Shown here: one piece after another, positions 15,131 to 51,257 of the stretch | Numbering within the stretch: position 1 is the stretch's first letter | Layout of the letters: every line of letters begins with the position of its first letter | DNA from: Candidatus Manganitrophus noduliformans | GTDB taxonomy: Bacteria; Nitrospirota; Nitrospiria; SBBL01; Manganitrophaceae | Length of the DNA: 64,000 bases | Direction of reading: 5' to 3' | NCBI RefSeq assembly: GCF_012184425.1 | Contig: NZ_VTOW01000005.1 | Location: forward strand, 62,001-126,000 | Program-made: the position numbers and the translations under genes | Notes under the pieces: generated by a model | Seen by the model: only the letters and a program-made list of their open reading frames with translations | The model's database searches: none | Told to the model about the DNA's origin: nothing

Positions 15131-16882
15131 ATGGCTCGACAACAAGGTCGATCGATGAAAACATGGACGAATGGATCGATTTCAAAAAAATTATATGTGG
15201 TGATCCTGATTTACTGTTCCATCATCGTCACGGCTTCTCTTCTCAGTTATTTCGGGATGGGCATCCTTTCGGGGGTTCGTGCTTATGTCGGCGCGGAGGG
15301 GGTCTGGTCGAGACATCAAAAAGAGGGGGCTTATTATCTTGCCCGATACGCGACCACACGGGAGGAGGTCCATTATCAGGCCTATTTGAACGCCATCGAG
15401 GTGATGCTTTCAGATAAGAAGGTGAGATTGGAACTGGAGAAACCGAATCCCGACTGGGCGCTTGCTCGTCAAGGATTCATCGGGGGAAAAGTCCACCCGG
15501 ACGATATCGACATCATGATCTTCTTATTCAGACAATTTCGTCAGCTGGACTATATCGCTAAAGCAATCGAGATTTGGGCCGAGGGGGACCGTCTCATCTC
15601 CGATCTCCAAGTGTTGGGAGAGGCACTGCATCGAGAGGTTTCTTCCGGAGGAGTCGCCTCTGCCAGGGTCGACATGATAATGAAAGATCTGGATGCTCTC
15701 AATAGAGAGTTGACGAATTTGGAACAGGCATTTTCCGCGACCTTAGGCGAAGCTTCCCGATGGGTGAAAGGGTTGCTCCTAAAAGTGATATTGGGGGTGT
15801 CATTCACCTTTTTGGCGGGGGGGCTGGCGATTTCTCTCTCGCTTTCTCGCTCGATTATCGAAAAGTTAAAGCGCGTTTCAGAGATTGCCGCCCGGGTCGC
15901 CTCCGGGGATCTGACCCTTCGAAGCGAAGTCGGTCAATTGGATGAGATCGGACGTTTCGCCCAAACGTTCAACACGATGACGCAAAATCTCCGGGAAATG
16001 ATTCTCCAGATCCGCGAAAAGGCGGCACAGGTGTCAGCCGCATCTGAAGAGATGTCGGCTTCAGGCCAGCAGATGGGATCGAACTCCGACCAGACGGAGA
16101 AATTGGCGAGCACCGTCTCCTCGGCGAGCGAGCAGACCAGCCGCAACGTGCAGGCGGTTGCCACCGCGGCGGAAGAGATGACCGCCACATTAAAAGAGAT
16201 CTCCCAAAATGTAATGAAGGCGACCCAGATTACGTCCGAGGCGGTGCAGATGGCACAGGGGACCAATCGGACAATCAGCAAGCTCGGGGAGAGCAGCGCG
16301 GAGATCGGGAAAGTCATCAAAGTAATCACATCGATTGCCGAGCAGACGAACTTATTGGCGTTGAACGCGGCGATCGAAGCGGCGCGTGCGGGAGAAGCGG
16401 GGAAAGGCTTTGCGGTAGTGGCCAACGAAGTCAAAGATCTGGCGAAGAAGACGGCCAAAGCGACGGAGGAGATCGGGCAGAAGATCGGGGTGATCCAGAC
16501 CGACACGAAAGAGGCGGTCTCCGCGATCGGAGAGATCACCGGGATCATCACCCAGATCAACGAGATCGCCACCACGATCGCGGGAGCGATCGAAGAGCAG
16601 ACGGCGACGACCAACGAGATCAGCCGCTCGGTGACGGAGGCGGCGCAAGGGACGGGAGAGGTCACCGAGAGCATCGATGGGGTGGTCTTCGCGGCGAAGG
16701 GGACGGCGGAAAGGGCGACCGCTATCCTGGACGCCTCTCAAAGGCTTGCCAAAATGAGCAGCGACCTCATGTCGCTGGTCGGCAAATTCCAAGCGGATCC
16801 AACAGGGGAGAGAGGGCGAGGCGATCGGTCTCATTTTGGATCCATCCTGTGGAAGGACCCGGAACCGGTCGAGAACCGTTGA
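15131..16882 (+). CDS. Methyl-accepting chemotaxis protein MCP2
   Basis: This 583-residue receptor has membrane helices near 18-40 and 215-240, a helical periplasmic domain rich in charged residues, a HAMP domain (about 240-295) and a signalling domain (about 300-560) with the tip [21 protein letters not shown] 15131 follows GGGAAG by seven bases; ATG 15155 is an alternative that would shorten the protein by eight residues. The signalling domain is nearly identical in DNA to those of MCP3, MCP4 and MCP5. The ligand is unknown. Confidence 0.88.
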
Positions 16883-16919
16883 TAAAGGCAAGAGAGCACC
16901 TGGAGCCGGCAGACGAACA

Positions 16920-16997
16920 ATGAAGATCCTGTTTACGGAAGACGACAAGGACATCGGTTGTGTTGTCCATTTGGAGGGTGAGGGGAGAAGGGGATGA
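16920..16997 (+). other. Possible 25-residue leader ORF overlapping the MCP3 start
   Basis: An ATG at 16920 opens a 25-codon frame (MKILFTEDDKDIGCVV at its start) that ends in an ATGA overlap with the MCP3 start codon. The first residues look like the beginning of a receiver domain, so it may be a remnant of a response-regulator gene or a translational-coupling leader. It has no clear ribosome site. Confidence 0.2.
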
Positions 16998-18568
16998 CAC
17001 CAGAAGAGAAAGTTTCGGTTCAGGTCGAAAAAATTCAGCAAAGGGCCTTGCCCCATTTCTGTGAGCAATTGAATAAAAATTATCGGGAGATCGATCGCCT
17101 TTTCGGGATGCTGATGATCTTTCAGTGGTTTGTGGGGCTTGTGTTTGCCGTTTTTGTTTTTCCCAATCAGTGGCCGAAAGAAACCCTTCAGGGGCAGCAT
17201 CCGTTGCTGCTGGCTCTCTTTTTAGGGGGGATTCTCACTGGGTTTCCCGTCTTTTTGGCTTTTACCAAGCCGGGCGCTCTGTTGACACGCCATGTCATCG
17301 CGGTATCGCAGATGCTCATGGGGGCGTTGCTGATCCATCTCTCCGGGGGGAGAATCGAGACGCATTTTCATGTCTTCGGCTCTCTTGCTTTTATTGCTTT
17401 TTATCGGGACTGGTCGCTCCTTCTCTCCGGAACGGCGATCGTTGCGGCCGATCACCTGATCCGGGGGATGTTTTTCCCCCAGTCTGTGTTCGGGATGCAC
17501 GATGCAAGTCAATGGCGTTGGCTGGAACACGCGGCCTGGGTGGTCTTTGAAGATGTGATCCTCGTGATGTCCTGTTTTCGCGGTCAACAGGAGATGCGGC
17601 TGGTCGCGGAAAGGCAGGCCGAGTTGGAGGAGATCATGGAGAATGTTCGGGGAGAGGTGTTGGGCCGCATGGTGGACCTGAACAAACAGTCGGAGGAGTT
17701 GGCGGCTTCGAGTCAGCAGATGGGATCGAACTCCGAGCAGACGGAGAAATTAGCGAGCACGGTCTCCTCGGCGAGCGAGCAGACCAGCCGCAACGTGCAG
17801 GCCGTCGCCACCGCGACAGAAGAAATGACGGCGACATTAAAAGAGATCTCCCAAAACGTGGTGAAAGCGACCCAGATTACGTCCGAGGCGGTGCAGGTGG
17901 CGCGGGAGACCAACCAGACGATCAGCAAGCTCGGGGAGAGCAGCGCGGAGATCGGGAAAGTCATCAAAGTGATCACATCGATTGCCGAGCAGACGAACTT
18001 ATTGGCGTTGAACGCGGCGATCGAAGCGGCGCGGGCGGGAGAAGCGGGGAAAGGCTTTGCGGTAGTGGCTAACGAAGTCAAAGATCTGGCGAAGAAGACG
18101 GCGAGAGCGACGGAGGAGATCGGGCAGAAGATCGGGGTGATCCAGACCGACACGAAAGAGGCGGTCTCCGCGATTGGAGAGATCACCGGGATCATCACCC
18201 AGATCAACGAGATCGCCACCACGATCGCGGGAGCGATCGAAGAGCAGACGGCGACGACCCACGAGATCGGCCGCTCGGTGATGGAGGCGGCCCGTGGGAC
18301 CGGAGAGGTCACCGAGAGCATCGATGGGGTGGTGATTGCCGCGAAGGGAACCGCCGAAGGGGCAACCACCATTTTAGACGCCTCTCAAAGGCTTGCCAAA
18401 ATGAGCAGCGACCTCATGTCGCTGGTCGGCAAATTCCAAATGAAGCGAGAAGAGGCTCATCCGGAAATGGATCGGATGGGGAATCGCCCTCGTTCGCCGT
18501 CGGTGATACGGCGGACCGAAGCCGTTTTATCGCGGTCGGAAAGGAAGGCCGAGTCCCTTCAAGGGTAA
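16994..18568 (+). CDS. Methyl-accepting chemotaxis protein MCP3 with polytopic membrane sensor
   Basis: This 524-residue receptor differs from its neighbours: instead of a periplasmic domain it has about five membrane helices between residues 35 and 195, including a segment with [20 protein letters not shown] and [12 protein letters not shown] similar membrane module (conserved His-x-His, FYRDW) occurs, as far as I recall, in some kinases and GGDEF proteins, but I cannot name the family. There is no obvious HAMP domain. The signalling domain (about 235-480) carries the usual tip [18 protein letters not shown] and is nearly identical to those of MCP2, MCP4 and MCP5. Sensing through or within the membrane is inferred. 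ATG 16994 is preceded by GGGGAGAAGGGG. Confidence 0.85.
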
Positions 18569-18619
18569 AGGTCGAGATTCGGAGCGAATGATGAATAGAA
18601 CAGTGAATAGGATCTTGGA

Positions 18620-20281
18620 ATGAAGTTCAAGGTCACGATCCAAGAGCAGCTTTTGGGGCTCGGATTCCTCGGTTTGTTGCTGGCGCTTGTGATCGGAGGG
18701 TTCGGTTTCTGGGGAATCACGCGGGTGACCGAGGCGATGAACCGGATGGAGGTGAGCGCGATCGCGTTGCGCTACCACTTGACCGCCGACAGGGTGCGCG
18801 ACGCGTTAAGGGCCGATGTCGAATCGGCGGCGATTGCGGCCGAGGCCGCAAACTCCGAGAAGAAGAAGGAGATCTTGGAAGAACTCTCCGGTCATGCGTC
18901 CCTCTTCCGAGAGCGGCTTAAGAACATCGAGGCGCTTCCCCTCCAAGGAGAGATTAAAGGGGAAATTCTGGAAATTCATCCCGGCCTGGACGCCTACATC
19001 AATAACGCGGAAGAGCTGGCAAGAATGATCCTCGACGGCCAACTCGTCGCGGCGGCTCCAATGGAGGAATTTGTCGCCGACTCCAAGAAATGGGAGGAGG
19101 AGATGCGGCGTTTAAGCGATCTGATCGAGCAGGACATGAGGCAGTCCCAAACGGAAGCGGGCGGGGCGAATCGGATCTCCCGGGTCATGATTATCGGCAT
19201 CTCCCTCCTGGGATTCTTGATCTTATCGGTTATTTCTCTGAAGAACGCCTCCTCGATTTCCCGGGCCCTCAAGCAGGTCTCGACGGTGGCGACGGAGGTG
19301 TCGGCAGGGAATCTCACCGTCCGGAACGAAGTGAACCGCGGGGATGAGATCGGTCACCTTGCAGGAACATTCAACCGCATGGCCGAGCATCTCCGAGAAT
19401 TGGTCTTTAAAATCCAAAGCGGTTCTCGGCAGATCGCCTCGACGTCGGAGGATTTGTTTGCCTCGAGTCAGCGGTTGAGCTCCAACTCTGAGGAGACCAA
19501 GCGGTTGGCGAGCACCGTCTCCTCGGCGAGCGAGCAGACCAGCCGTAACGTGCAGGCCGTCGCCACCGCGACAGAAGAAATGACGGCGACATTAAAAGAG
19601 ATCTCCCAAAACGTGGTGAAAGCGACCCAGATTACGTCCGAGGCGGTGCAGGTGGCGCGGGAGACCAACCAGACGATCAGCAAGCTCGGGGAGAGCAGCG
19701 CGGAGATCGGGAAAGTCATCAAAGTGATCACATCGATTGCCGAGCAGACGAACTTATTGGCGTTGAACGCGGCGATCGAAGCGGCGCGTGCGGGAGAAGC
19801 GGGGAAAGGCTTTGCGGTGGTGGCCAACGAAGTCAAAGATCTGGCGAAGAAGACGGCCAAAGCGACCGAGGAGATCGGGCAGAAGATCGGAGTCATTCAG
19901 ACCGACACGAAAGAGGCGGTCTCCGCGATTGGAGAGATCACCGGGATCATCACCCAGATCAACGAGATCGCCACCACGATCGCGGGAGCGATCGAAGAGC
20001 AGACGGCGACGACCAATGAGATCAGCCGCTCGGTGATGGAGGCGGCCCGGGGGACCGGAGAGGTCACCGAGAGCACCGAAGGGGTGGTCTCCGCAGCAAG
20101 GGGGACAACGGAAGGGGCGGAGAGTGTTTTGGTCGCCTCTCAAAAGTTGGCGGAGATGGGGGCCGATTTGATGGTCCTCGTCAGCAAGTTTCAAATTCAT
20201 CCGGAGCAGAGGCGAAAACAAGAAAAGGCGCCGGCGTCCGGATCTCGGGTCAAGGGCACTGAACAGCCGACGGGGATCTGA
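18620..20281 (+). CDS. Methyl-accepting chemotaxis protein MCP4
   Basis: This 553-residue receptor has membrane helices near 10-33 and 188-208, a helical four-helix-bundle-like periplasmic domain ([20 protein letters not shown] onward), a HAMP domain (about 210-262) and a signalling domain (about 285-530) with the standard tip. The first half of its signalling-domain DNA closely follows MCP3. A short ORF (ATG 18588, [11 protein letters not shown]) ends in an ATGA overlap with this start codon. The ligand is unknown. Confidence 0.88.
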
Positions 20282-20291
20282 AGGAGATTCG

Positions 20292-20981
20292 GTGAAAGGG
20301 TCATTTTCAGGAGCAATGGGGGGTGAAGGGGGAGTGGGAGAGGGAAAACCCGGGCGCCGTCTTTTTGGCCGCTTCGTCCTCATGCTCTTCGTTCTATCGG
20401 TCGGGTGGGAGGTTTTTGCCCAGACCAGCGGCGATCTGATGCACCGACGGAACAGCGCCGGTCCGCAGGGGCCGTTGATCCAGCTTTTTCAGAAGGCGGT
20501 TGTCGCGACGAAAGAAGGGGACTGGAAAACGATCGAAGAGCAGGTTCAGCAGATCAGCGGACGGCTGGGTGAGTACAAAAAAAATCTCGGGATCGACCTG
20601 ACGTCGACAATTCAAAAAGCAGTGGCGGCGAAAAACGGCGGGGAAGTCCTCAAATATTTGGCGGAGGTGGTCTATCTGGATATGCGGATGCAATTCAAGA
20701 TGATCATTGCGTCCAAGCTGGATGATTTTTTGAATGCCAAGGAGCGACTGGATCTGGCAAGGGAGTATTACGATGTCATCCTTTCCGGAAATGTGAAACG
20801 GAAAGCCCCGAACCGGCACGAGAAGATCGAATCGAGCTTTCTTGTCGCGCAGGGGGCGCTCGGGAATCCCGGCTTCTACGTCGATCTTCCATTCTCTCCT
20901 CCGAATGTGAGGGGTTTTGAAGCGGCCTCCAAAACGATTGAGACGGAGATCGCCGCCATTTACACCTACTTTAAGGGATAG
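20292..20981 (+). CDS. Secreted protein of unknown function (paralog A)
   Basis: I do not recognise this 229-residue protein. It starts at GTG 20292 after AAGGAGA and has a charged N-terminus, a hydrophobic signal segment (about 27-43) ending near VFAQ, and a mostly helical mature part. Shared blocks with the next gene include GPLIQLFQKAVVATKEGDW, SGNVKRKAPNRHEKIE, ALGNPGF and a C-terminal IYTYFKG, so the two are diverged tandem duplicates. Both lie between MCP4 and a porin gene, suggesting a periplasmic role tied to that porin or to MCP5. No Cys residues or haem motifs are present. Confidence 0.6.
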   Translation: MKGSFSGAMGGEGGVGEGKPGRRLFGRFVLMLFVLSVGWEVFAQTSGDLMHRRNSAGPQGPLIQLFQKAVVATKEGDWKTIEEQVQQISGRLGEYKKNLGIDLTSTIQKAVAAKNGGEVLKYLAEVVYLDMRMQFKMIIASKLDDFLNAKERLDLAREYYDVILSGNVKRKAPNRHEKIESSFLVAQGALGNPGFYVDLPFSPPNVRGFEAASKTIETEIAAIYTYFKG

Positions 20982-21015
20982 TTCGGTGCAAAAGAGAAAG
21001 GAGCGTGAGTGTGAA

Positions 21016-21645
21016 ATGATTCGGTCGATGGTTTTTCTCATTATGATGCTCGCGTTTTGTTTCACCGAGGCAACGGCGGCGCAGACCGCAAGCGAGTATC
21101 TCCGGAACAGAGGGGGGGAGTCTCAAGATTCGGAAGATCCCCTCATCGCGGCATTCATCCGAACTCTCTCCGCCTCGAAGGAGGGGAGGTGGACCGAGGT
21201 CGAAGCGAACGTTTCCGATTTGACGCCGGTGTTGAAGAAATATGCGACGCAATTTCGCGTGGATCTCGCCCCTCGGCTGAAGAAGGGGGCGGCGGCGAAC
21301 GATTCCAACGAGATTGCTAAGAGTTTTGCACATGTTCTTTTTCTTGGCATGAGTGAAAATTTTCACCAAGCGATCGAAGAGCGATTCAAGAATTACGAAC
21401 GCTCATCTTATCTCCTGGCAACGGCCCTCTATTATTACGAGCGAGTTTTGGCGGGCAACATCAAGCGCAAGGAGCCGTCGGTGCACGATGAGATCATGCG
21501 GCAGTTCGAGCAGGCCCAATTGGCGATCGGCAATCCAGGCTTGCTCGGCGCCGGAAAACTGGATCCCGACCCGCAGCGCTTCGCATCGGCGGCAAAGGCG
21601 ATTGAAATGAACATCAAGCGGGTCTACACCTATTTCGCCAAATGA
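21016..21645 (+). CDS. Secreted protein of unknown function (paralog B)
   Basis: This 209-residue protein is a paralog of the preceding gene product. It has a signal peptide (about 1-20, ending TAAQ) and shared blocks DPLIAAFIRTLSASKEGRW, AGNIKRKEPSVHDEIM, AIGNPGLLG and VYTYFAK. ATG 21016 is chosen over upstream in-frame codons because it begins a clean signal peptide, with AAAGGAG about 12 bases upstream. The protein is predicted to be soluble, helical and periplasmic. No family is recognised. Confidence 0.62.
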   Translation: MIRSMVFLIMMLAFCFTEATAAQTASEYLRNRGGESQDSEDPLIAAFIRTLSASKEGRWTEVEANVSDLTPVLKKYATQFRVDLAPRLKKGAAANDSNEIAKSFAHVLFLGMSENFHQAIEERFKNYERSSYLLATALYYYERVLAGNIKRKEPSVHDEIMRQFEQAQLAIGNPGLLGAGKLDPDPQRFASAAKAIEMNIKRVYTYFAK

Positions 21646-21658
21646 AAAGGAGACACCC

Positions 21659-22786
21659 ATGAAACAGAACAAGACGATTATCGGCGCGTTTTTCTTCTTC
21701 CTCGCGGCGGTCTTATTATTTCCCGTGGCGGGATCTGCCGCCGAGGAAGACGAATTCACCTTCGGCGATCTTTTTGTCACCCGTAGTTCGACGGAGAAGG
21801 TGAGGTTTCACGGTTATGCCGCCTTCCAGTATTTCGACGCCGAGGGGGCGAGCCCGGGGGGAAATCGCACCTTCGATCAGCATGTCTTCGAGCCGTTCTT
21901 CGGCTATCAAGTCGCCGACCATGTTTTCGCGAAGATCATTCTGGAATTCGAACATGTCCCGGAGGAGGTCGATGACGACCAGTTCGCCGAGTTCTTCATC
22001 GAGCAGGCGGAAATCGATATCACGCCGTGGCCGGGGACGACGTTCGCCTTCGGGGCGATCCTGGTTCCCTTCGGCTTGGAGAACTATCTTCACTCCCCCT
22101 CGGACAATCGCCTGGTCAGCCGCCCTCCGATGACGAAGAGCGGCCCCAACGGAAATCCGATTCTCAACAACACCTGGACGGATGTCGGCATCCAGTTTAC
22201 CCATGAAATTCCTATGGTCGGAATGGTCGATCTCTATACGATCAACGGCAGCGCCGTGCAGGACAAAGGAAGCCGGGGACGGGATACGAAAGGGGCGAGC
22301 GCAAACAGCGGGAAGTCGTACGGCACGGAGGTCCAGGTGACGAAGCTCTTGCCGGGGGTGAACGTCGGCGCTTCCTACGTCACCGGCCCGCACGATCCGG
22401 GCAGCGATCTGGACTCCTCCCGGTGGGGGGTTCATGCATTGGCCGACCTGGGGATCATTTATCTTCAAGCGGAATACATCCTGGGGACCGATGAGGGACT
22501 GGGCGCCTCGGGGGGGGATCGGGATGTCTCCGGCTATTATGCCTTGGTTTCATTCGTTCCCCCGGTGGCGTCGCTTGAGAACCGTCTCGATCTGAATGTC
22601 CGATATACCGATTGGACGGCCGACAAAGACGCCGAGAAAGACTTTACCGAAACGGCCGTCGGGATCCGTTATCGCCCCTATCAGAACACATGGGCGAAGG
22701 TGGAGTATCAGATGAATAAAGAGGAGGGGAGCAACACCGAGGTCGATAACAACGTTGCCGCGTTTCAGCTGAGCGTCTTGTTTTAA
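21659..22786 (+). CDS. Outer-membrane porin-like beta-barrel protein (porin 2)
   Basis: This 375-residue protein has a signal peptide (about 1-28, ending GSAAEE), an acidic mature N-terminus DEFTFGDLF and then alternating strands consistent with an outer-membrane barrel ([39 protein letters not shown]), ending with FQLSVLF, where the terminal Phe fits barrel-assembly recognition. AAAGGAGA lies at a normal distance from ATG 21659. It resembles the phosphate/short-chain porin type in size, but the substrate is unknown. The following MCP5 carries FTFD motifs in its periplasmic domain that echo the FTFGD motif here. Confidence 0.72.
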
Positions 22787-22800
22787 ATGGGCGGAGCGGA

Positions 22801-22824
22801 CCGGGCCTTCGTCGGAGGGCCCGG
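22801..22824 (+). other. Intercistronic hairpin between porin 2 and MCP5
   Basis: CCGGGCC and its complement GGCCCGG frame a 10-base loop. There is no T-run after the stem, so termination is unlikely. It may stabilise or process the porin mRNA, allowing porin and receptor levels to differ. Confidence 0.4.
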
Positions 22825-22859
22825 CCGTCCGAACGGATCGATTCAATGAGGAGATAAAG

Positions 22860-25016
22860 ATGCAGGGTTTCTTTGGGACATGGGATCTTCGAAGAAGGCT
22901 CCTCACATGGTTTTTGCTGGTCGCGATGGTCCCGATGGTTCTGATCACGGCAGCGAATCTTTTCCTCTCCGCCAGGAATCTCCGGCGCGAGATGGGGGAT
23001 CGGCTCGCGGCGAATCGGAAGGGAGCCGAGATCGAGCTTCAGAAAGAAGAGAAACGACTCCTCAATCAGGCAGAGCGTTATGCCGCGCAGTCGCTCCTGG
23101 TTCAGACGATCGCTTCCAGCAACCGGGAGATGATCAAACGACTCCTTGTGCAGCTTCTCGAATTTTCAGATTCGGGTTTGTTGGGGATTTATGACGCGCA
23201 AGGGACGCCGATCTCGATCGTTCAAAAGACCAAGGCGAAGCACGCCGCTTCATTGGAGCCGGTTCGGCCGAATCAAACGGAAAAAATCGGCTTGCGGCCC
23301 CCCTCTTTCGGTGTCTCCTCCGCATACGCTGAAGAGGACTTTACATTCGATATTCCTCCATCGGGAGAATCAAAAGATACTTTTACTTTTGATGGTCAGA
23401 ATGGATCGGCTTCACCCTCCGTTCCGGCCGGCGTGGTAAAGGATTTGAGAGAAGGTCCCCTTCCTCCGGAAGTGATGGAGCAGCTTCAAGCGAACGACCA
23501 TGCCGTTGTTCGGACCGCTCAAGAGAGCGGGGTGGAGGTCTCTGTTTATCAGGCGCTTCAATTTTCAGGGCGCCGGATCGGCATTCTGAGGGAGGGAGCG
23601 GTCCTTAATCAGGACTTCATCGATGGGATGAAACATCGGGTGGGGCTGGAAGTGGCCCTCGTCGATCGCGAAGGGCGGAAAGTCATCTCAACCCTTTCCG
23701 GACTGGACGCCGTGGTCATCAAGGAGGCGGTCGCAGCGCCGATCAGAGAGAAGATCGGAGGAGGGGAGTACCTTTATATGGCTCTTCCCTTGATCGAGAA
23801 AAATGGGGTGATGCAAGGGGGGATTGTTCTTCTGCAGCCGCTCGATTCGCTCCTGTCGAGCCAAAGGGAGATCACCGTTTTTTCGTTGATCCTCTTCGGG
23901 GGAGTCGGCATTGTCGTTGCCATGGTGAGCCTTCGGACGGCCCGATCGATCAGCCGGCCGCTTCATCAAATCATGGAGGTTTTAAAGCGGGCGGAACAAC
24001 AAGGGGACCTGACACAGCGGATCGACATTAAAAGCCGCGATGAGATCGGCGAGCTGGGACGGTGGTTCAACACCTTTTCGGAAAAATTCTCAGGGATCAT
24101 CTCCCGGGTGAAAGATTCGACCCGTTCCCTGGCGGTCTCATCCGAGGAGCTGTCGGCCTCGAGTCAGCAGATGGGATCGAACTCCGAGCAGACGGAGAAA
24201 TTGGCGAGCACCGTCTCCTCGGCGAGCGAGCAGACCAGCCGCAACGTGCAGGCGGTTGCCACCGCGGCGGAAGAGATGACGGCGACATTAAAAGAGATCT
24301 CCCAAAATGTAATGAAGGCGACCCAGATTACGTCCGAGGCGGTGCAGATGGCACAGGGGACCAATCGGACAATCAGCAAGCTCGGGGAGAGCAGCGCGGA
24401 GATCGGGAAAGTCATCAAAGTAATCACATCGATTGCCGAGCAGACGAACTTATTGGCGTTGAACGCGGCGATCGAAGCGGCGCGTGCGGGAGAAGCGGGG
24501 AAAGGCTTTGCGGTAGTGGCCAACGAAGTCAAAGATCTGGCGAAGAAGACGGCGAGAGCGACGGAGGAGATCGGGCAGAAGATCGGGGTGATCCAGACCG
24601 ACACGAAAGAGGCGGTCTCCGCGATTGGAGAGATCACCGGGATCATCACCCAGATCAACGAGATCGCCACCACGATCGCGGGAGCGATCGAAGAGCAGAC
24701 GGCGACGACCAACGAGATCGGCCGCTCGGTGATGGAGGCGGCCCGTGGGACCGGAGAGGTCACCGAGAGCATCGATGGGGTGGTGATTGCCGCGAAGGGA
24801 ACCGCCGAAGGGGCAACCACCATCCTCGCCGCCTCGAAGCGGCTGGCCCAGATGGGCGCCGAATTAATGGCGATGGTCAGCCAATTCCACGTTGAGGCCG
24901 ACAGAATCGGCTCAGGCGATCCGAAAGATACATTCTCCGTTCAAAAAGAGAGGAAATTACCATTGATGACTCAAAAAGCCGAGCCGCTTAGTCCGAAACA
25001 GAGTGAGGTTGTTTAA
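22860..25016 (+). CDS. Methyl-accepting chemotaxis protein MCP5 with large periplasmic domain
   Basis: This 718-residue receptor has membrane helices near 15-37 and 339-361, a periplasmic domain of about 300 residues that looks like a dCache/sCache-type sensor, a HAMP domain (about 362-415) and a signalling domain (about 430-660). A low-complexity insert (about 152-190) contains [13 protein letters not shown] and [10 protein letters not shown], resembling the mature N-terminus of porin 2. The signalling domain is a mosaic: its 5' part matches MCP2 DNA, its 3' part matches MCP3. GAGGAGAT precedes ATG 22860. It closes the receptor block and is followed by cheY and cheB. Confidence 0.88.
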
Positions 25017-31841: not shown

Positions 31842-32594
31842 ATGGATGGAATTTATCCGGTCCTCTCGGGAGCCTTGGCGCAAGAAAAGCGTCTGGAGGT
31901 CATCACGAATAATCTGGCGAACGTCAACACCGCCGGATTCAAGAAAGATCATCCTCTCTTCGAGGGAATCGGGCTGCCGCCCGGATTGAATGCAGGGCCG
32001 AGCGGATCGATCACCCCCAGCCCGACCTTCGAGATTCTTCACCACGTTTTTACCGATTTCTCCTCCGGTCCGATCCGAATGACGGGAGAGCCGCTCGATA
32101 TTGCGATTGAAGGAGAAGGTTTCTTTGCGGTCCAGACCCCGGGGGGAGTTCGTTATACCCGCGGGGGGAGCTTCACCCTTGATGCACAGGGACAGATCAC
32201 CACGCACGACGGATTCCCGCTTTTGGGAACCGGCGGGCCGATCACCCTCCCGCCGGGGTCGATCCAGATCGACGCAGAGGGACGGCTCTCGGTGAAGGGG
32301 ACCGAAGTCGGCGCGCAGCCGACCGAGGTCGATGCCTTGGCGCTCTACCGGTTTTCCGATCCGTCTCGATTGAAGAAGGTCGGCAACACCCTTTTTGAAT
32401 CGGTCGGCGGAGGGGCGGTTCCTTTTCCGGAAGGGAGGGTGAGCCAGGGGGCCCTGGAAGGAGCGAATGTCAATCCGGTGGAAGAGATGGTCGCGATGAT
32501 TACAGTGATGCGCCTGTATGAGTCGGCCCAGAAAGCGATTCAGACCGCCGATGAGGTCGCCTCCAAGGCGGCCAATGAAGTCGGGCGTCTATAA
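31842..32594 (+). CDS. flgF: Flagellar proximal rod protein FlgF
   Basis: This 250-residue rod protein has the N-terminal rod motif ITNNLANVNTAGFKKDH and the C-terminal GANVNPVEEMVAMITVMRLYE, shared by axial rod and hook proteins exported through the flagellar type III system. Its length fits FlgF. It is followed by flgG after 42 bases. The ribosome site is CGGAG, ten bases before the ATG. It is the first gene behind the sigma-54 promoter at 31769. Confidence 0.9.
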   Translation: MDGIYPVLSGALAQEKRLEVITNNLANVNTAGFKKDHPLFEGIGLPPGLNAGPSGSITPSPTFEILHHVFTDFSSGPIRMTGEPLDIAIEGEGFFAVQTPGGVRYTRGGSFTLDAQGQITTHDGFPLLGTGGPITLPPGSIQIDAEGRLSVKGTEVGAQPTEVDALALYRFSDPSRLKKVGNTLFESVGGGAVPFPEGRVSQGALEGANVNPVEEMVAMITVMRLYESAQKAIQTADEVASKAANEVGRL

Positions 32595-32636
32595 TCGGGC
32601 GTCTATAAGATGAGCAAATCGGGAGGAGAGTGAGCT

Positions 32637-33422
32637 ATGATGCGCGCGTTATCCATCGCCAGTACCGGCTTGGGATCCCAGCAGCTTTCGATCGAGGTCA
32701 TCGCCAATAATTTGGCCAACGTTTCGACCGTCGGCTTCAAGAAAAGCCGGGGAGAATTCCAAGACCTGATGTATCAGACCCTGAAATCGGCGGGCACCGC
32801 CACCGCGACGGGAACGCTGCCGGTCGGGATTCAGCTTGGATCGGGGGTCATCCCGGTCTCGGTCCACCGGACATTCGCACAGGGGGACTTTCAGCAGACG
32901 CAGAATCCGCTCGATCTCGCCATCGAGGGGGACGGCTTTTTCCAGGTGACCCTTCCGGACGGCTCCACCGGCTACTCGCGCGCCGGATCGTTGAGCCTCG
33001 ACAGCGAAGGAAGCATCGTGACCGCCGAAGGTTATCCGCTTCTTCCGAATATCACGATCCCCTCCGGCGCACAAACGGTGACCATCCTTCCCACCGGGGT
33101 GGTTTCCGCCGTTGTGACGACGGGGGCGGCGCCGCAGCTGGTCGGAACGCTTGAGCTGGCGCGCTTCACCAATCCGGCCGGTCTTCACAGCATTGGAAAA
33201 AACCTCTATCAGGCGACCGACGCCTCCGGAGAAGCGGTGACCGGCGCGCCGGGAGAGGAAGGATTCGGAACTGTCCAACAGGGCTCCCTTGAAGGCTCCA
33301 ACGTCAACATCGCCGAGGAAATGGTGAACATGATCGTCGCGCAGCGCGCCTATGAATTGAACTCCAAAGCGATCCAGACGACCGATGAAATGCTGTCGAT
33401 GGTCAATAACCTCAAACGGTAA
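32637..33422 (+). CDS. flgG: Flagellar distal rod protein FlgG
   Basis: This 261-residue protein is a canonical FlgG: the N-terminus MMRALSIASTGLGSQQLSIE and VIANNLANVSTVGFKKSRGE, the FQDLMYQTLK segment and the C-terminal GSNVNIAEEMVNMIVAQRAYE followed by NSKAIQTTDEML are all present. It forms the distal rod that crosses the P- and L-rings. ATGATG at 32637 offers two adjacent start codons. It is co-transcribed with flgF and flgA. Confidence 0.95.
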   Translation: MMRALSIASTGLGSQQLSIEVIANNLANVSTVGFKKSRGEFQDLMYQTLKSAGTATATGTLPVGIQLGSGVIPVSVHRTFAQGDFQQTQNPLDLAIEGDGFFQVTLPDGSTGYSRAGSLSLDSEGSIVTAEGYPLLPNITIPSGAQTVTILPTGVVSAVVTTGAAPQLVGTLELARFTNPAGLHSIGKNLYQATDASGEAVTGAPGEEGFGTVQQGSLEGSNVNIAEEMVNMIVAQRAYELNSKAIQTTDEMLSMVNNLKR

Positions 33423-33449
33423 GCAAAGGGTAAGCAAAGGATAAGGAAG

Positions 33450-34196
33450 ATGAGCGGTTTTTTTAGAATCCTGTTTTTGATCATGCTGATCTTCGCGGGC
33501 GTCGGCGCGGTTGAGGCGGCGGATGGTTTGGAAAATGGAGCAGCCGTTCAACCGGAAACCGTTCCCGGTCCGGCGGAGAAGATCAGCACCGCCATACGCG
33601 CCTATGTGGCGGAACGTCTTCCCTCAAAAGAAAGCGACATCCGGGTTCGCCTTCTCCGTCCACCGGACGGTTCATTTGTCATGGAGGACGGATTGGAGGT
33701 CAAGGAAGGATCGCGCGGATTGCTCGGCCGGGTGGTCTTCCTCATTTCTTCGAGACCGAACGGGAAACCGGCCGCGCATCAGTGGGTCACCGCGAATGTC
33801 GAAATGATCCGATCGATCGTCGTTTCCGCTCGGCCGCTCCGCCGCGCTGAAGTGATCGGACCGGACGATGTCGAGATCCGGTCGGTCGCAGTGACCCGCG
33901 CGGGGGAATCTTATCTCTTCGATCCCGACGCGCTGATCGGAAAAAGGGTGATCCGCTCCATCGGCGCCGGCCTGCCGATCTCCGTCGAGATGGTCGAGAC
34001 GGCGCCGGTGATTCGCTCGGGAGATCGGGTGACGATGATCGTTGAATTGGGCGGATTGCGGATCGCTACGATGGGCCGGGCCAAGGAAGAGGGTTTTCTC
34101 GGAAGACAGATGGCGGTGGTCAACCCCGACTCCCAGAAGACGGTCTACGGAGAGGTGATCGACGCCGCGACGGTGAAAATAACCCTTCCGAGATAA
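33450..34196 (+). CDS. flgA: P-ring assembly chaperone FlgA
   Basis: This 248-residue periplasmic protein has a signal peptide (about 1-24, ending VEAAD), a middle region, and a C-terminal SAF-type domain with RPLRRAEVIGPDDVEIR, LIGKRVIRSIGAGLPIS and a final VNPDSQKTVYGEVIDAATVK. FlgA assists polymerisation of FlgI into the P-ring. It is encoded between flgG and flgH-flgI, as in many flagellar operons. Confidence 0.9.
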   Translation: MSGFFRILFLIMLIFAGVGAVEAADGLENGAAVQPETVPGPAEKISTAIRAYVAERLPSKESDIRVRLLRPPDGSFVMEDGLEVKEGSRGLLGRVVFLISSRPNGKPAAHQWVTANVEMIRSIVVSARPLRRAEVIGPDDVEIRSVAVTRAGESYLFDPDALIGKRVIRSIGAGLPISVEMVETAPVIRSGDRVTMIVELGGLRIATMGRAKEEGFLGRQMAVVNPDSQKTVYGEVIDAATVKITLPR

Positions 34197-34200
34197 AGGA

Positions 34201-34288
34201 TCATTTGCCATTGATCATTTTTCATTTGAGAAATGGAAAATAGAAAAAGGCAAATGACAAATGGAAAATGGAAAATGGAAAATAGAAA
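34201..34288 (+). repeat. Heptanucleotide repeat array and inverted repeat at the flgH start
   Basis: From 34233 to 34288 there are eight 7-base units of the type ATGGAAA (ATGGAAA, ATAGAAA, AAGGCAA, ATGACAA, three ATGGAAA, ATAGAAA). Upstream, TCATTTGCC (34201-34209) is inverted relative to GGCAAATGA (34249-34257), so the region can also fold. Because seven is not a multiple of three, successive ATG codons fall in all three frames. The array encodes the N-terminal residues of FlgH. Confidence 0.85.
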
Positions 34289-34970
34289 ATTTTTGAGTCA
34301 AAAAACGGTCGCCCAGTTGCTTCTCGTGGGTTTCGCTTTCTTCGCCGGCTGTGCGGCGGTTCCGAGGGAAATGAAGCCGGAAGAGAGCCTTCCCCCGGCC
34401 TACCTTCAGCCCGCAGAACTTCATCAGTCGGAGGGCTCCCTCTGGACCTCGGATCAATCGCGGACCTTTTTCTTTCAAGATACAAAGGCGAGCCATGTGG
34501 GCGATATCGTCACCGTGCGGATTGTCGAGAATGCCAGAGGATCGAAGGATGCCCAGACCACGTCGGGCCGCTCTTCGACGATCGGCGCCAGCACGAGCGC
34601 TTTTTTGGGGATTCCGACGAATACCACTCAAAAACTCCAGGCGGATGCCACCTTTTCGGATGATTTTGACGGCTCGGGATCGACCAGCCGCAGCGGGGCG
34701 TTGACCGCCGATATCACCGCCGTGGTGACGGCCGTCTTCCCGAACGGGAATATGGTGATCGAGGGGAAGCGGGAGGTTCTTATTAATAGTGAAAAAGAGC
34801 TGATCTCCCTGGCGGGGGTGATCCGCCCCGAGGATATCGGTCCGAGGAACACGATCCTCTCGACCTTCATCTCCGACGCAAAGATTGAATACACCGGCCG
34901 CGGCGTCATCAACGATAAACAACGGCCGGGGTGGCTGATCCGGATTCTCGATTGGATATGGCCCTTCTAA
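34275..34970 (+). CDS. flgH: Flagellar L-ring lipoprotein FlgH
   Basis: FlgH forms the outer-membrane L-ring. From ATG 34275 the protein has 231 residues with a lipoprotein signal MENRKFLSQKTVAQ, a hydrophobic core and the lipobox FAGC (Cys26). The mature part has FFFQDTKASHVGDIVTVRIVE, SGALTADITAVVTAVFPNGN and VIRPEDIGPRNTI, all typical of FlgH. Earlier in-frame ATGs at 34254 and 34233 would add 7 or 14 residues from the heptamer repeat; 34275 gives the most natural signal peptide, but the start cannot be fixed from sequence. Confidence 0.93.
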   Translation: MENRKFLSQKTVAQLLLVGFAFFAGCAAVPREMKPEESLPPAYLQPAELHQSEGSLWTSDQSRTFFFQDTKASHVGDIVTVRIVENARGSKDAQTTSGRSSTIGASTSAFLGIPTNTTQKLQADATFSDDFDGSGSTSRSGALTADITAVVTAVFPNGNMVIEGKREVLINSEKELISLAGVIRPEDIGPRNTILSTFISDAKIEYTGRGVINDKQRPGWLIRILDWIWPF

Positions 34971-35005
34971 ATGCGAAATGCGGGGTGCGGAATGCGGAGT
35001 GAAGA
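34971..35005 (+). repeat. Heptanucleotide repeat at the flgI start
   Basis: Five 7-base units follow the flgH stop codon: ATGCGAA, ATGCGGG, GTGCGGA, ATGCGGA and GTGAAGA. Each contains ATG or GTG, again placing possible starts in all three frames. The unit differs from that at flgH, but the period and position are the same. Confidence 0.75.
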
Positions 35006-36820: not shown

Positions 36821-37423
36821 ATGCGGGACGTTGAATTCGGAATGAAGCGTGAAGAGCAACAGATTGATTATTCCGCGTCCCGTCCCCTGCAATCGGCGCT
36901 TCCCCTCCCCGGAACCCTGACCGTCCCGGATGCGCTGTTAATACCGCTCGTTTCGACCCTGGAGGAGATGATCCTCGTTCAACAGGAAATGCTCTCTCTC
37001 CTTCAGCGCGAGAAGAAGCTGATGATCGGTGGAGAGCTCGATGATCTTCTCCGTTGTCTTCAGGAAAAAGAAAACTTTCTGGGCCGTCTCCGCGGATTGG
37101 AGCAACGGCGCCAAGCGGAGATCGCCCCGATGGCCCGACAATGGGGGGGAGAAGATCGGCCATTGACGCTCAAACAGCTGGCTCAGCGGGTCCCCGAGCC
37201 TTTCCGGGGACGACTGACTGATTGCCATACCCGGCTTGAGGCGTTGACCGCCAGCATTCAGGAACTCAATCAGATCAACGGACTTTTAATCGACCGAATC
37301 CAAGAACGGATCACGGCGCTGGTCGGCCTTTTGCGGCACCTTTCGTCCACCGATCCGATCTACCAACCGAATGGAGCGCTTCAGCCTTTTCCATCGGGGG
37401 GAAGGGCGATCAGTCAAGGATAG
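36821..37423 (+). CDS. flgN: Flagellar export chaperone FlgN
   Basis: FlgN chaperones FlgK and FlgL to the export gate. The 200-residue protein has a long helical core (VSTLEEMILVQQEMLSLLQ, LDDLLRCLQEKENFLGRLR) typical of the FlgN family, and lies between flgM and flgK as usual. ATG 36821 follows GAAGGGGG at about seven bases; the longer upstream frame overlaps flgM and is not coding. The C-terminal tail is Pro/Gly-rich. Confidence 0.88.
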   Translation: MRDVEFGMKREEQQIDYSASRPLQSALPLPGTLTVPDALLIPLVSTLEEMILVQQEMLSLLQREKKLMIGGELDDLLRCLQEKENFLGRLRGLEQRRQAEIAPMARQWGGEDRPLTLKQLAQRVPEPFRGRLTDCHTRLEALTASIQELNQINGLLIDRIQERITALVGLLRHLSSTDPIYQPNGALQPFPSGGRAISQG

Positions 37424-49859: not shown

Positions 49860-50648
49860 ATGCTGAAGCGCCGATTGATCCCGAAGCTTCAGATGAAGAC
49901 GAGCGCTCATGGCGGATCGGATCGAAAAGTCCTGGTCACCACCATTCAATTTAAGGAAGTCCTGGAGATCGGCGATCCGGTTTCTCAGGCGAAGATCTAC
50001 GAAGCGCAGGCGGCGGATGAGCTGATTTTTCTCGATCTGGATGCTTCGTCGGATCATCGCAAGCCGATCTTGGAGGTGATCCGCAGAGCGGCCGAGGAGA
50101 TCTTCATGCCGTTTACAGTCGGAGGTGGGGTGAGGTCGATTGATGATTTTCGAGATCTCCTCTCGAGCGGGGCCGATAAGGTCAGCATCAACACCGCGGC
50201 TGTTGAAACCCCGGACCTTATCAACGATGCGGCGGAGGTCTTCGGCGCGCAGTGTGTGGTGTTGAGCATCGACTGTCGAAGCGAAAAAGAGGGGGGCTTC
50301 CGGGTGTGGATCAACGGAGGAAGAATCAAAACAGAGCTCGACCCGGTCGCGTGGGCGATCGAGGGGGAAAAACGAGGCGCGGGCGAGATTCTGCTGACGT
50401 CGATCGACCGCGACGGGATGCGCTGCGGACTCGATCTGGAGCTGACCCGGCGGGTGGCGGAAGCGGTCTCGATTCCGGTGATCGCGTCGGGCGGGTGCGG
50501 CGCGGCCTCTCATTTCGTGGAGGGGCTCCAAACCGGACGGGCCGATGCCGTCGCCGCCGGCACGTACTTTTGTTTTAAAGATGAAAACCCGATGCAGACC
50601 CGGTCCCAAATCCGGAATGCCGGAATTCCGATTCGAATGCATCGATAG
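49860..50648 (+). CDS. HisF-like synthase subunit (sugar-amidination paralog)
   Basis: This 262-residue TIM-barrel protein has ADELIFLDLDAS, FTVGGGVRSIDDF, SINTAAVE and VIASGGCGAASHF, typical of HisF. The N-terminus reads RRLIPKLQMKTS: position 11, the catalytic Asp of imidazole glycerol phosphate synthase (LDVKDG), is Gln here, while the later Asp in LSIDCR is kept. That change occurs in the WbpG-associated HisF2 paralogs and supports an ammonia channel for the amidotransferase at 47994. Confidence 0.88.
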   Translation: MLKRRLIPKLQMKTSAHGGSDRKVLVTTIQFKEVLEIGDPVSQAKIYEAQAADELIFLDLDASSDHRKPILEVIRRAAEEIFMPFTVGGGVRSIDDFRDLLSSGADKVSINTAAVETPDLINDAAEVFGAQCVVLSIDCRSEKEGGFRVWINGGRIKTELDPVAWAIEGEKRGAGEILLTSIDRDGMRCGLDLELTRRVAEAVSIPVIASGGCGAASHFVEGLQTGRADAVAAGTYFCFKDENPMQTRSQIRNAGIPIRMHR

Positions 50649-50663
50649 AAGGGAGGGGGACGG

Positions 50664-51257
50664 GTGCCAGAGGCCGGGGGCCGGAAAAAAGGTGAAGCAT
50701 TGACCTACTTTTTGGAAGGAAAACGGATTTACCTCCGCGAGGTGCGGCCTTCGGACGTCAATGAACGTTATTATCGTTGGATGAACGATCCGGAGATCAC
50801 CCGATTCCTGGAGAGCCGGTTTGCGCCGAACGCGATCGAAAATCTCCGTGACTATGTCGCCGGAAAACTGGGGGATCGCGACAATCTCTTTTTGGCGATT
50901 GTCCTAAAAGAAGAGGATCGCCACATCGGCAATATCAAGTTGGGCCCGATCCAGTGGATTCACCGTCTGGCCGACATCGGCCTCTTGATCGGCGAGAAAG
51001 ATTGCTGGGGGAAGGGGTATGCTACTGAAGCGATTCAGCTGGTTTCCGATTATGCTTTCAACGTTTTGAATCTCCATAAGGTGGCCGCCGGATGTTACGG
51101 CCCGAATGAAGGCTCCGCCCGGGCCTTTCAAAAGGCCGGTTTCGTGGTGGAAGGGGTTCGAAAGGAGCAGTTTTATTCAAACGGATCTTATGTCGATGAT
51201 ATTCTCTTGGGCCTCATTCGGCCCGACTGGAATCAAGGAAAGCGAGCGACGGGATGA
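50664..51257 (+). CDS. GNAT N-acetyltransferase, RimJ/RimL-like
   Basis: This 197-residue acetyltransferase has IYLREVRPSDVNERYYRWMN, IGNIKLGPIQWIHRLADIG, the acetyl-CoA loop KDCWGKGYATEAI and NEGSARAFQKAGF. It starts at GTG 50664 with GGGAGGGG five bases upstream. A second GNAT at 55405 looks closer to PseH, so this one may acylate another amine of the nonulosonic acid. It overlaps pseG by ATGA. Confidence 0.82.
   Translation: MPEAGGRKKGEALTYFLEGKRIYLREVRPSDVNERYYRWMNDPEITRFLESRFAPNAIENLRDYVAGKLGDRDNLFLAIVLKEEDRHIGNIKLGPIQWIHRLADIGLLIGEKDCWGKGYATEAIQLVSDYAFNVLNLHKVAAGCYGPNEGSARAFQKAGFVVEGVRKEQFYSNGSYVDDILLGLIRPDWNQGKRATG

What the first reader, a model, noticed from the sequence alone, without database searches (positions are those of the whole stretch)
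34201..35005. Heptanucleotide repeats at the start codons of flgH and flgI
Two consecutive ring genes begin inside different 7-base tandem arrays (ATGGAAA type with eight units; ATGCGGA type with five). Each unit has a start codon, so gain or loss of units shifts frames while always leaving another start in frame. This could tune signal-peptide length or ring expression, like a contingency locus, or be invasion by intergenic STRR-like repeats known from cyanobacteria.
Basis: seen in the sequence. Interest (0 to 1): 0.62.

Follow-up and report, generated by a model that had tools for sequence, protein, structure and literature searches.

The report
Seven-base repeat palindromes at operon junctions
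The odd seven-base repeats at the starts of two flagellar genes are two members of a genome-wide population of seven-base repeat palindromes lodged between neighbouring genes; they sit where those genes begin, but they do not behave like a fast on/off switch.

Summary
flgH starts inside an eight-unit heptamer array and flgI inside a five-unit one.

The contingency-locus reading is not supported. The flgI array keeps five units in five Ca. Manganitrophus genomes, down to 80% nucleotide identity. The flgH array has the same unit number in own and G003. The shared starts lie at 34275 (flgH) and 34992 (flgI).

The "invasion by STRR-like repeats" reading is closer. In 1.53 Mb of this genome, period-7 arrays number 43 (1 in shuffled sequence); 27 of 34 clusters lie between co-directional genes (8 expected), and 31 of 43 have an inverted partner. 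A hydrogenase operon carries 81-bp [ATTTNYC]5–centre–[GRNAAAT]5 elements at junctions that are short and empty in two relatives. Orthologous copies hold ATTT..C at 2% divergence while N/Y change at 20%/10%. The same class is dense in a Pyrinomonadaceae contig.

Heptanucleotide intergenic repeats are a known kind. The regular palindromic operon-junction form is a variant I found undescribed in the held papers. Function and maker remain unproven.

The parts
33450..34196 (+). flgA (upstream gene; its stop codon lies 6 nt before the palindrome)
   Evidence: ORF list; Pfam ChapFlgA 8e-30, SAF 6.1e-9
34203..34223 (+). left (inverted) arm of the flgA-flgH palindrome: ATTTGCC ATTGATC ATTTTTC, 3 units
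   Evidence: sequence; element scan
34224..34234 (+). 11-nt centre ATTTGAGAAAT
   Evidence: the same 10-12 nt centre form occurs in the other elements
34275..34970 (+). flgH from the start shared by own, G003 and G005 (ATG at the boundary of units 6 and 7 of the right arm; MENRKFLSQ... with FFAGC lipobox); alternative in-frame starts at 34254 (own, G003) and 34233 (own only)
34971..35005 (+). flgI heptamer array, 5 units ATGCGAA ATGCGGG GTGCGGA ATGCGGA GTGAAGA; begins directly after the flgH stop TAA
34992..36119 (+). flgI from the start in unit 4 (ATGCGGAGT), in frame and present in own, G005 and G002; 34971 is a second in-frame ATG in own and G005

Best explanation
The two arrays belong to a genome-wide population of dispersed heptamer-repeat elements, mostly palindromic, that lodge in the gaps between co-directional genes of an operon. 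The flgH one is a variant (3 + centre + 8 units) of an element whose regular form here is [ATTTNYC]5 - 10-12 nt centre - [GRNAAAT]5, about 81 bp. The flgI one is a single arm of a second family (GCGGAAT/GCGGATT); G004 has both arms. Shown: the dispersal, the period of 7, the operon-junction position, the inverted arms, presence or absence at orthologous junctions, near-constant unit number between species, and conservation of the word ATTT..C with free N/Y positions. Inferred: an element enters a short or overlapping stop-start junction and separates the two genes. It is tolerated because its units carry a ribosome-binding-like GGA and an ATG about 9 nt apart, so a gene-proximal unit becomes the new start of the downstream gene (MENR... 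in FlgH and in a hydrogenase protease). In the mRNA it then forms an imperfect intercistronic hairpin that can alter coupling or stability between the two cistrons. Units turn over slowly by slippage or conversion, and arms can be deleted as in G005. It does not act as a fast phase switch.
For: Period 7 is specific: 43 arrays in 1.53 Mb of own sequence, 1 in shuffled sequence, 1-5 at most other periods that are not multiples of 7 (10 at period 12), 28 and 17 at 14 and 21 (earlier subset). Context: 27 of 34 clusters lie between co-directional genes (8.0 expected), 5 inside genes (23.3 expected). 31 of 43 have an inverted partner arm within 90 nt, against 0-2 in controls. The hydrogenase operon at C5:312-320 kb has such elements at most of its gene junctions. 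At orthologous junctions own and G003 carry 68-83 nt elements where G002 and G001 have short empty junctions; one element (hypC-hypD) is in own only. Architecture: 5+5 units with a 10-12 nt centre. Constraint: own against G003 orthologous elements differ at 5.4% of sites, flanks at 6.4%; by position N 19.5%, Y 10.4%, constant letters 8/385 = 2.1%. flg junctions in five genomes; relatedness (own,(G003,G005)) with G002 and G004 at 80%. Hairpin: hydrogenase element -40.3 kcal/mol, z -6.6; flgH element -21.5, z -2.6.
Against: The flgI array alone does not fold unusually well (z +0.9) and has only one arm in four of five species. The two arms do not show compensatory pairing in this genus: at the variable dinucleotides natural arms match less often than arms swapped between elements (38% v 47%, p 0.03 in own; 33% v 42%, p 0.03 in G003), so selection for a perfect RNA hairpin is not supported. 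No mobilising enzyme was found, no target-site duplication was seen, and flanks are altered at filled junctions, so 'insertion' could be other rearrangement. The hydrogenase operon has a mosaic history (own is closer to G002 than to G003 in part of it), which blurs polarity there. Gene calls were simple ORF calls. No expression data exist here.
Confidence: 0.66

Rival explanations
1. Ordinary neutral by-product: heptamer slippage together with fold-back (template-switch) copying at short intergenic gaps makes degenerate tandem and inverted heptamers. They persist wherever they do not break a gene, and have no function.
For: Heptanucleotide over-representation is reported for many bacteria and attributed to polymerase slippage (as cited in PMC4679880 and PMC4692102). 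Many unrelated unit sequences share the architecture in one genome. Arms are not co-adapted. Unit number does change sometimes: c2_472 from 5+5 to 4+4, a 13-nt loss in h5, about one unit in c2a.
Against: The constant letters of orthologous elements change about three times less often than flanking, mostly coding, DNA, and the elements are regular 5+5. Junctions between co-directional genes are preferred far beyond random expectation, convergent and divergent ones are not. The same unit words recur in different phyla.
Confidence: 0.2
2. Contingency locus: unit gain and loss at the flgH/flgI starts shifts frames or leader length and so varies ring assembly between cells.
For: Heptamers at start codons with starts in all three frames. 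Heptanucleotide phase variation exists elsewhere, e.g. H. influenzae HMW1A and E. coli K1 NeuO (papers listed).
Against: Five flgI units in five species; identical array in three species about 95-99% alike; flgH unit number equal in own and G003. Units are too degenerate for efficient slippage. Similar arrays stand before hydrogenase and other housekeeping genes rather than surface genes.
Confidence: 0.06
3. Binding-site arrays: the heptamers are recognised as DNA or RNA by a repeat-binding regulator, forming a regulon.
For: Conserved core letters with variable N/Y positions look like a recognition word; regular unit number. A translational regulator has been suggested for TAACTGA heptamers at start codons (PMC4679880), and paired heptanucleotide sites were called global regulator sites in Geobacter (PMC2700814).
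Against: At least seven different unit families coexist in this genome, which one protein could hardly read. Downstream genes share no obvious pathway. No protein candidate was tested.
Confidence: 0.12
4. REP/REPIN-like miniature element moved by a Y1 (IS200/IS605-type) transposase.
For: Dispersed extragenic palindromes, present or absent at orthologous junctions. Y1 transposases exist in own (2 matches) and in the array-rich Pyrinomonadaceae (9-10).
Against: G003, whose main chromosome is a single contig and which carries many family-A elements, has no Y1 match and no reverse transcriptase match. No conserved non-periodic sequence of the REP kind was seen.
Confidence: 0.04

Closest known systems
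Heptanucleotide long simple-sequence repeats of bacteria (Mrazek et al. 2007, as cited in PMC4679880 and PMC4692102) and cyanobacterial STRR heptamers (Calothrix, as cited in PMC4692102)
   Same: 7-nt units, tandem, degenerate, dispersed, mainly intergenic, several unit sequences per genome
   Different: Here most arrays are paired into palindromes with a short centre, one family has a regular 5+5 form, and they occupy operon junctions and supply start codons
GGGNATC repeats of Xanthomonas / GGGGA(C/T)T of Nostoc (PMC4692102)
   Same: Heptamers in intergenic DNA, majority between genes of the same direction; paired inverted arrangements mentioned for Xanthomonas; positions conserved between species
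   Different: Family A here is A+T-rich and has no G-tracts for quadruplexes; unit sequences differ
TAACTGA direct repeats of Beggiatoaceae (PMC4679880)
   Same: Heptamers within a few nt of start codons, dispersed, proposed translational role; a TAACTGA array also appears in the Pyrinomonadaceae contig (PYR 54105-54128)
   Different: Mostly direct repeats of one fixed word; one inverted case reported
Paired octa- and heptanucleotide 'regulator sites' of Geobacter metallireducens (PMC2700814)
   Same: Tandem heptanucleotides (MTYCTGA x5) and octanucleotides, mostly occurring in pairs on opposite strands at variable distance
   Different: Other unit sequences; the distance between arms varies there, whereas family A here has a fixed 10-12 nt centre; operon-junction placement was not described in the passages read
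Heptanucleotide phase-variable loci (H. influenzae HMW1A, E. coli K1 NeuO; titles)
   Same: 7-nt tandem units at or near a gene start
   Different: Those vary in unit number within a species (established knowledge, papers not read here); here unit number is nearly constant between species

Membership tests
Phase-variable (contingency) repeat locus | Tract of near-identical units able to slip often | tested here: not met
   At most three identical consecutive units at flgH, none at flgI
Phase-variable (contingency) repeat locus | Unit number differs among close relatives | tested here: not met
   flgI 5 units in 5 species; flgH equal in own and G003; G005 lost one 64-nt block. Strain- and read-level variation could not be tested
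Phase-variable (contingency) repeat locus | Unit change switches expression | not testable with these tools
   Needs reporters
Dispersed intergenic heptanucleotide repeats (LSSR/STRR class) | Period 7 over-represented above other periods | tested here: met
   43 v 1 shuffled v 1-10 at other non-multiple periods
Dispersed intergenic heptanucleotide repeats (LSSR/STRR class) | Mainly outside genes, many loci | tested here: met
   29 of 34 clusters outside gene bodies, 10.7 expected
Dispersed intergenic heptanucleotide repeats (LSSR/STRR class) | The specific cyanobacterial STRR unit sequences | not tested
   No dedicated search for those words was run; unit lists show other words
REP/BIME/REPIN | Extragenic dispersed palindrome | tested here: met
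REP/BIME/REPIN | Associated Y1 (RAYT) transposase in the genome | tested here: not met
   No PF01797 match in element-bearing G003; 2 matches in own
G-quadruplex heptamers (Xanthomonas/Nostoc) | Runs of three or more G in each unit | tested here: not met
   flgH units have at most GG; among flgI units only one has GGG
Known structured RNA (Rfam) | Match above gathering score | tested here: not met
   0 matches in window and L046; only chance-level matches with relaxed threshold

The most novel reading that the evidence does not exclude
The [ATTTNYC]n-centre-[GRNAAAT]n palindromes and their sister families are one cross-phylum class of self-spreading operon-junction element. An unknown 7-nt-stepping mechanism makes them, their arms are kept imperfect by selection, and they hand the downstream gene a new ribosome-binding site and start codon, rewriting gene N-termini and intercistronic coupling across whole operons.
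Probability: 0.25. Interest if true: 0.78.

Novelty: new variant of a known kind. Interest (0 to 1): 0.5.

Why it matters
Why seven-base repeats are over-represented in bacteria is an open question about twenty years old. The papers read treat single unit words or a single genus. Here the same architecture with many unit words appears in Nitrospirota and Acidobacteriota, sits at operon junctions, comes and goes between close species, and supplies start codons. That makes its origin and effect directly testable: empty and filled orthologous junctions, a defined 81-bp element, and position-specific constraint. It also warns annotators that N-termini such as NGKWKMEN or IRNPQSEI can be repeat-derived, so start sites at such genes should be chosen with relatives in view, usually at a gene-proximal unit.

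Tried and rejected
Contingency locus: rejected on conserved unit number and fixed starts.

REP/RAYT mobilisation: Y1 transposase absent from element-bearing G003. Reverse-transcriptase origin: RT absent from G003 and from the Pyrinomonadaceae.

Known RNA family: none in Rfam.

Hairpin maintained by compensatory change: not found in this genus; pairing is somewhat worse than in swapped arms. The duplex-energy version is confounded by unequal arm lengths, so I rely on the unit-level test. The opposite result for acidobacterial arms mixes several genomes and is not used as evidence.

The unit words themselves were not found as text in the held papers (a reading limit, since sequences are often in figures or supplements).

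Early orientation mistake: some fetched loci are in contig orientation, so the first alignment was wrong for G005 and was redone.

Full report
OBSERVATION. The window has flgA (33450-34196), flgH and flgI in a row. Between the flgA stop and flgH lies a palindrome of heptamers: three units ATTTGCC ATTGATC ATTTTTC, the centre ATTTGAGAAAT, then eight units of type GRNAAAT up to 34290. The flgH stop TAA is followed at once by five heptamers of type ATGCGGA (34971-35005), in which flgI starts. These are the only two period-7 segments scoring 9 or more in the 64 kb; shuffles never reached either score. The inverted left arm was missed, and not every unit makes a start codon.

THE ORGANISM. The window is therefore from that genus of manganese oxidisers in Nitrospirota. 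This identification is by inference.

NOT A FAST SWITCH. In five genomes of the genus the flgH-flgI junction carries five heptamers in gap-free register. They are identical in own, G003 and G005, vary slightly in G002, and have the unit GCGGATT in G004. G004 also has the opposite arm, four AATCCGC-type units about 75 nt further on. At the flgA-flgH junction own and G003 have the same number of units, with point changes and one 1-nt deletion that puts the first ATG out of frame in G003. G005 lacks a 64-nt block containing the left arm and part of the right arm. G002 and G004 have nothing comparable. By flgI sequence own is 95% like G003 and G005, those two are 98.9% alike, and G002 and G004 are about 80% like own, so the G005 state is most simply a loss. 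The shared in-frame starts are the ATG at 34275 for flgH (own, G003, G005) and the ATG at 34992 for flgI (own, G005, G002). The GAC4 flgI frame is broken downstream of the array by a missing base in a T-run, possibly a sequencing error.

A GENOME-WIDE POPULATION. A pattern of three AATGGAA units had 37 matches in the genome and none for the reversed control. In 1.13 and then 1.53 Mb of the genome, period 7 stood out alone with its multiples: 43 arrays, 1 in shuffled sequence, 1-10 at other periods. Unit families include GGAAAAT/GGCAAAT, GCGGATT, TTATTCG/AACGATT, GCGTGAG, CCCCTGA/CCCCCGG, CCGCCTT and CATTCCT. Thirty-one of 43 have an inverted partner within 90 nt (controls 0-2). Twenty-seven of 34 clusters lie between co-directional genes (8 expected) and five inside genes (23 expected). 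Gene calls here are simple coding-score ORF calls, so the numbers are approximate.

EMPTY AND FILLED JUNCTIONS. A hydrogenase maturation and structural operon at C5:312-320 kb carries such elements at most of its gene junctions (gene names there are my reading of the translations). Most of the same junctions in G003 carry orthologous elements. In G002 and G001, where covered, they are a few to a few tens of nt long, with overlapping or nearly touching stop and start. The hypC-hypD element is in own but not in G003 or G001. The filled junctions also have altered gene ends: a gene-proximal unit supplies the downstream start (MENR...), and the first base of the element can help form the upstream stop. 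Because this operon has a mosaic history in the genus, gain is likely but loss is not excluded at every site.

ANATOMY AND CONSTRAINT. The A+T-rich family has the regular form [ATTTNYC]5, a 10-12 nt centre, [GRNAAAT]5. The flgH element is a 3+8 variant. Eleven ortholog pairs between own and G003 differ at 5.4% of aligned sites, their flanks at 6.4%. Position by position, in the eight cleanly phased pairs, N differs at 19.5%, Y at 10.4%, and the constant letters at 8 of 385. Unit number is unchanged in most pairs; one pair went from 5+5 to 4+4. The two arms of an element do not match each other at N/Y better than arms of different elements, but somewhat worse (p about 0.03 in each of two related sets). 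A perfect hairpin is therefore not what is conserved. As RNA the elements still fold well (hydrogenase example -40.3 kcal/mol, z -6.6; flgH -21.5, z -2.6).

BEYOND THE GENUS. Many of these are true heptamer palindromes of the same words, others look like chance. A 361-kb contig of a Pyrinomonadaceae genome holds 46 period-7 arrays in many unit families, 24 of 38 clusters at co-directional junctions (7.6 expected). Among them are the flgH word (AAATGGA x4), the GCGGATT word and TAACTGA. A member of another family of the same class (L065) has its own heptamer array (GGGTGTA type) at the flgH-flgI junction.

KNOWN KIND. Over-representation of heptanucleotide repeats, their intergenic placement, placement near start codons, and pairs on opposite strands have each been reported, in separate genera (PMC4692102, PMC4679880, PMC2700814). 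The reading 'STRR-like' is thus right in kind. I found no description in the held papers of the regular 5+5 palindrome, its operon-junction habit, its cross-phylum words, or its constraint pattern. That search is limited to open papers and cannot see figures.

MECHANISM. Shown: dispersal, period, position, palindromy, filled and empty junctions, slow unit turnover, word constraint. Inferred: entry into short junctions; tolerance because GGA and ATG recur with spacing suited to initiation; a modest effect on coupling or stability through the imperfect hairpin. Unknown: what makes the arrays and why the step is seven. A Y1 transposase is not required (none found in G003), nor a reverse transcriptase.

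Noticed in passing
window 33413-33445: An 11-nt tandem repeat (CAAAGGGTAAG x3) spans the flgG stop and the flgG-flgA gap; flgF ends near a 14-nt direct repeat (32581-32608).
   Followed up: no
window 50641-50690: G-rich, weakly period-7 stretch (GGGAGGG GGACGGG ... GGCCGGG GGCCGGA), apparently near a gene start; may be a decayed array.
   Followed up: partly
window 36821-36850: The likely flgN start (ATGCGGGACGTTGAATTCGGAATGAAG) resembles a decayed heptamer array of the flgI type.
   Followed up: no
window about 15131-25016: Several long ORFs share near-identical short repeats in the same relative place (16533, 18180, 19935, 24631); they look like tandem chemoreceptor (MCP) paralogs.
   Followed up: partly
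G000 C5:137643-137680 (outside the window): Inside a ProRS-like gene own has four GGGGGCC units where G005 has GGGGGTA/GGGGACA-type units at the same length: unit sequence replaced without length change.
   Followed up: yes
L046:15384-15416: A GCGGATT array lies in frame inside the hypF-like gene; repeat-derived residues IRNPQSEI appear in the protein.
   Followed up: partly
G000 C5:312-320 kb against G002/G003: The hydrogenase operon is mosaic: part of it is closer to G002 (93.6%) than to G003 (83.6%), against the flgI order, suggesting exchange within the genus.
   Followed up: partly
L065 (G020), upstream of flgI: A heptamer array of another unit (GGGTGTA/GGGGGTA) sits at the same flgH-flgI junction in a different family of the class.
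   Followed up: partly
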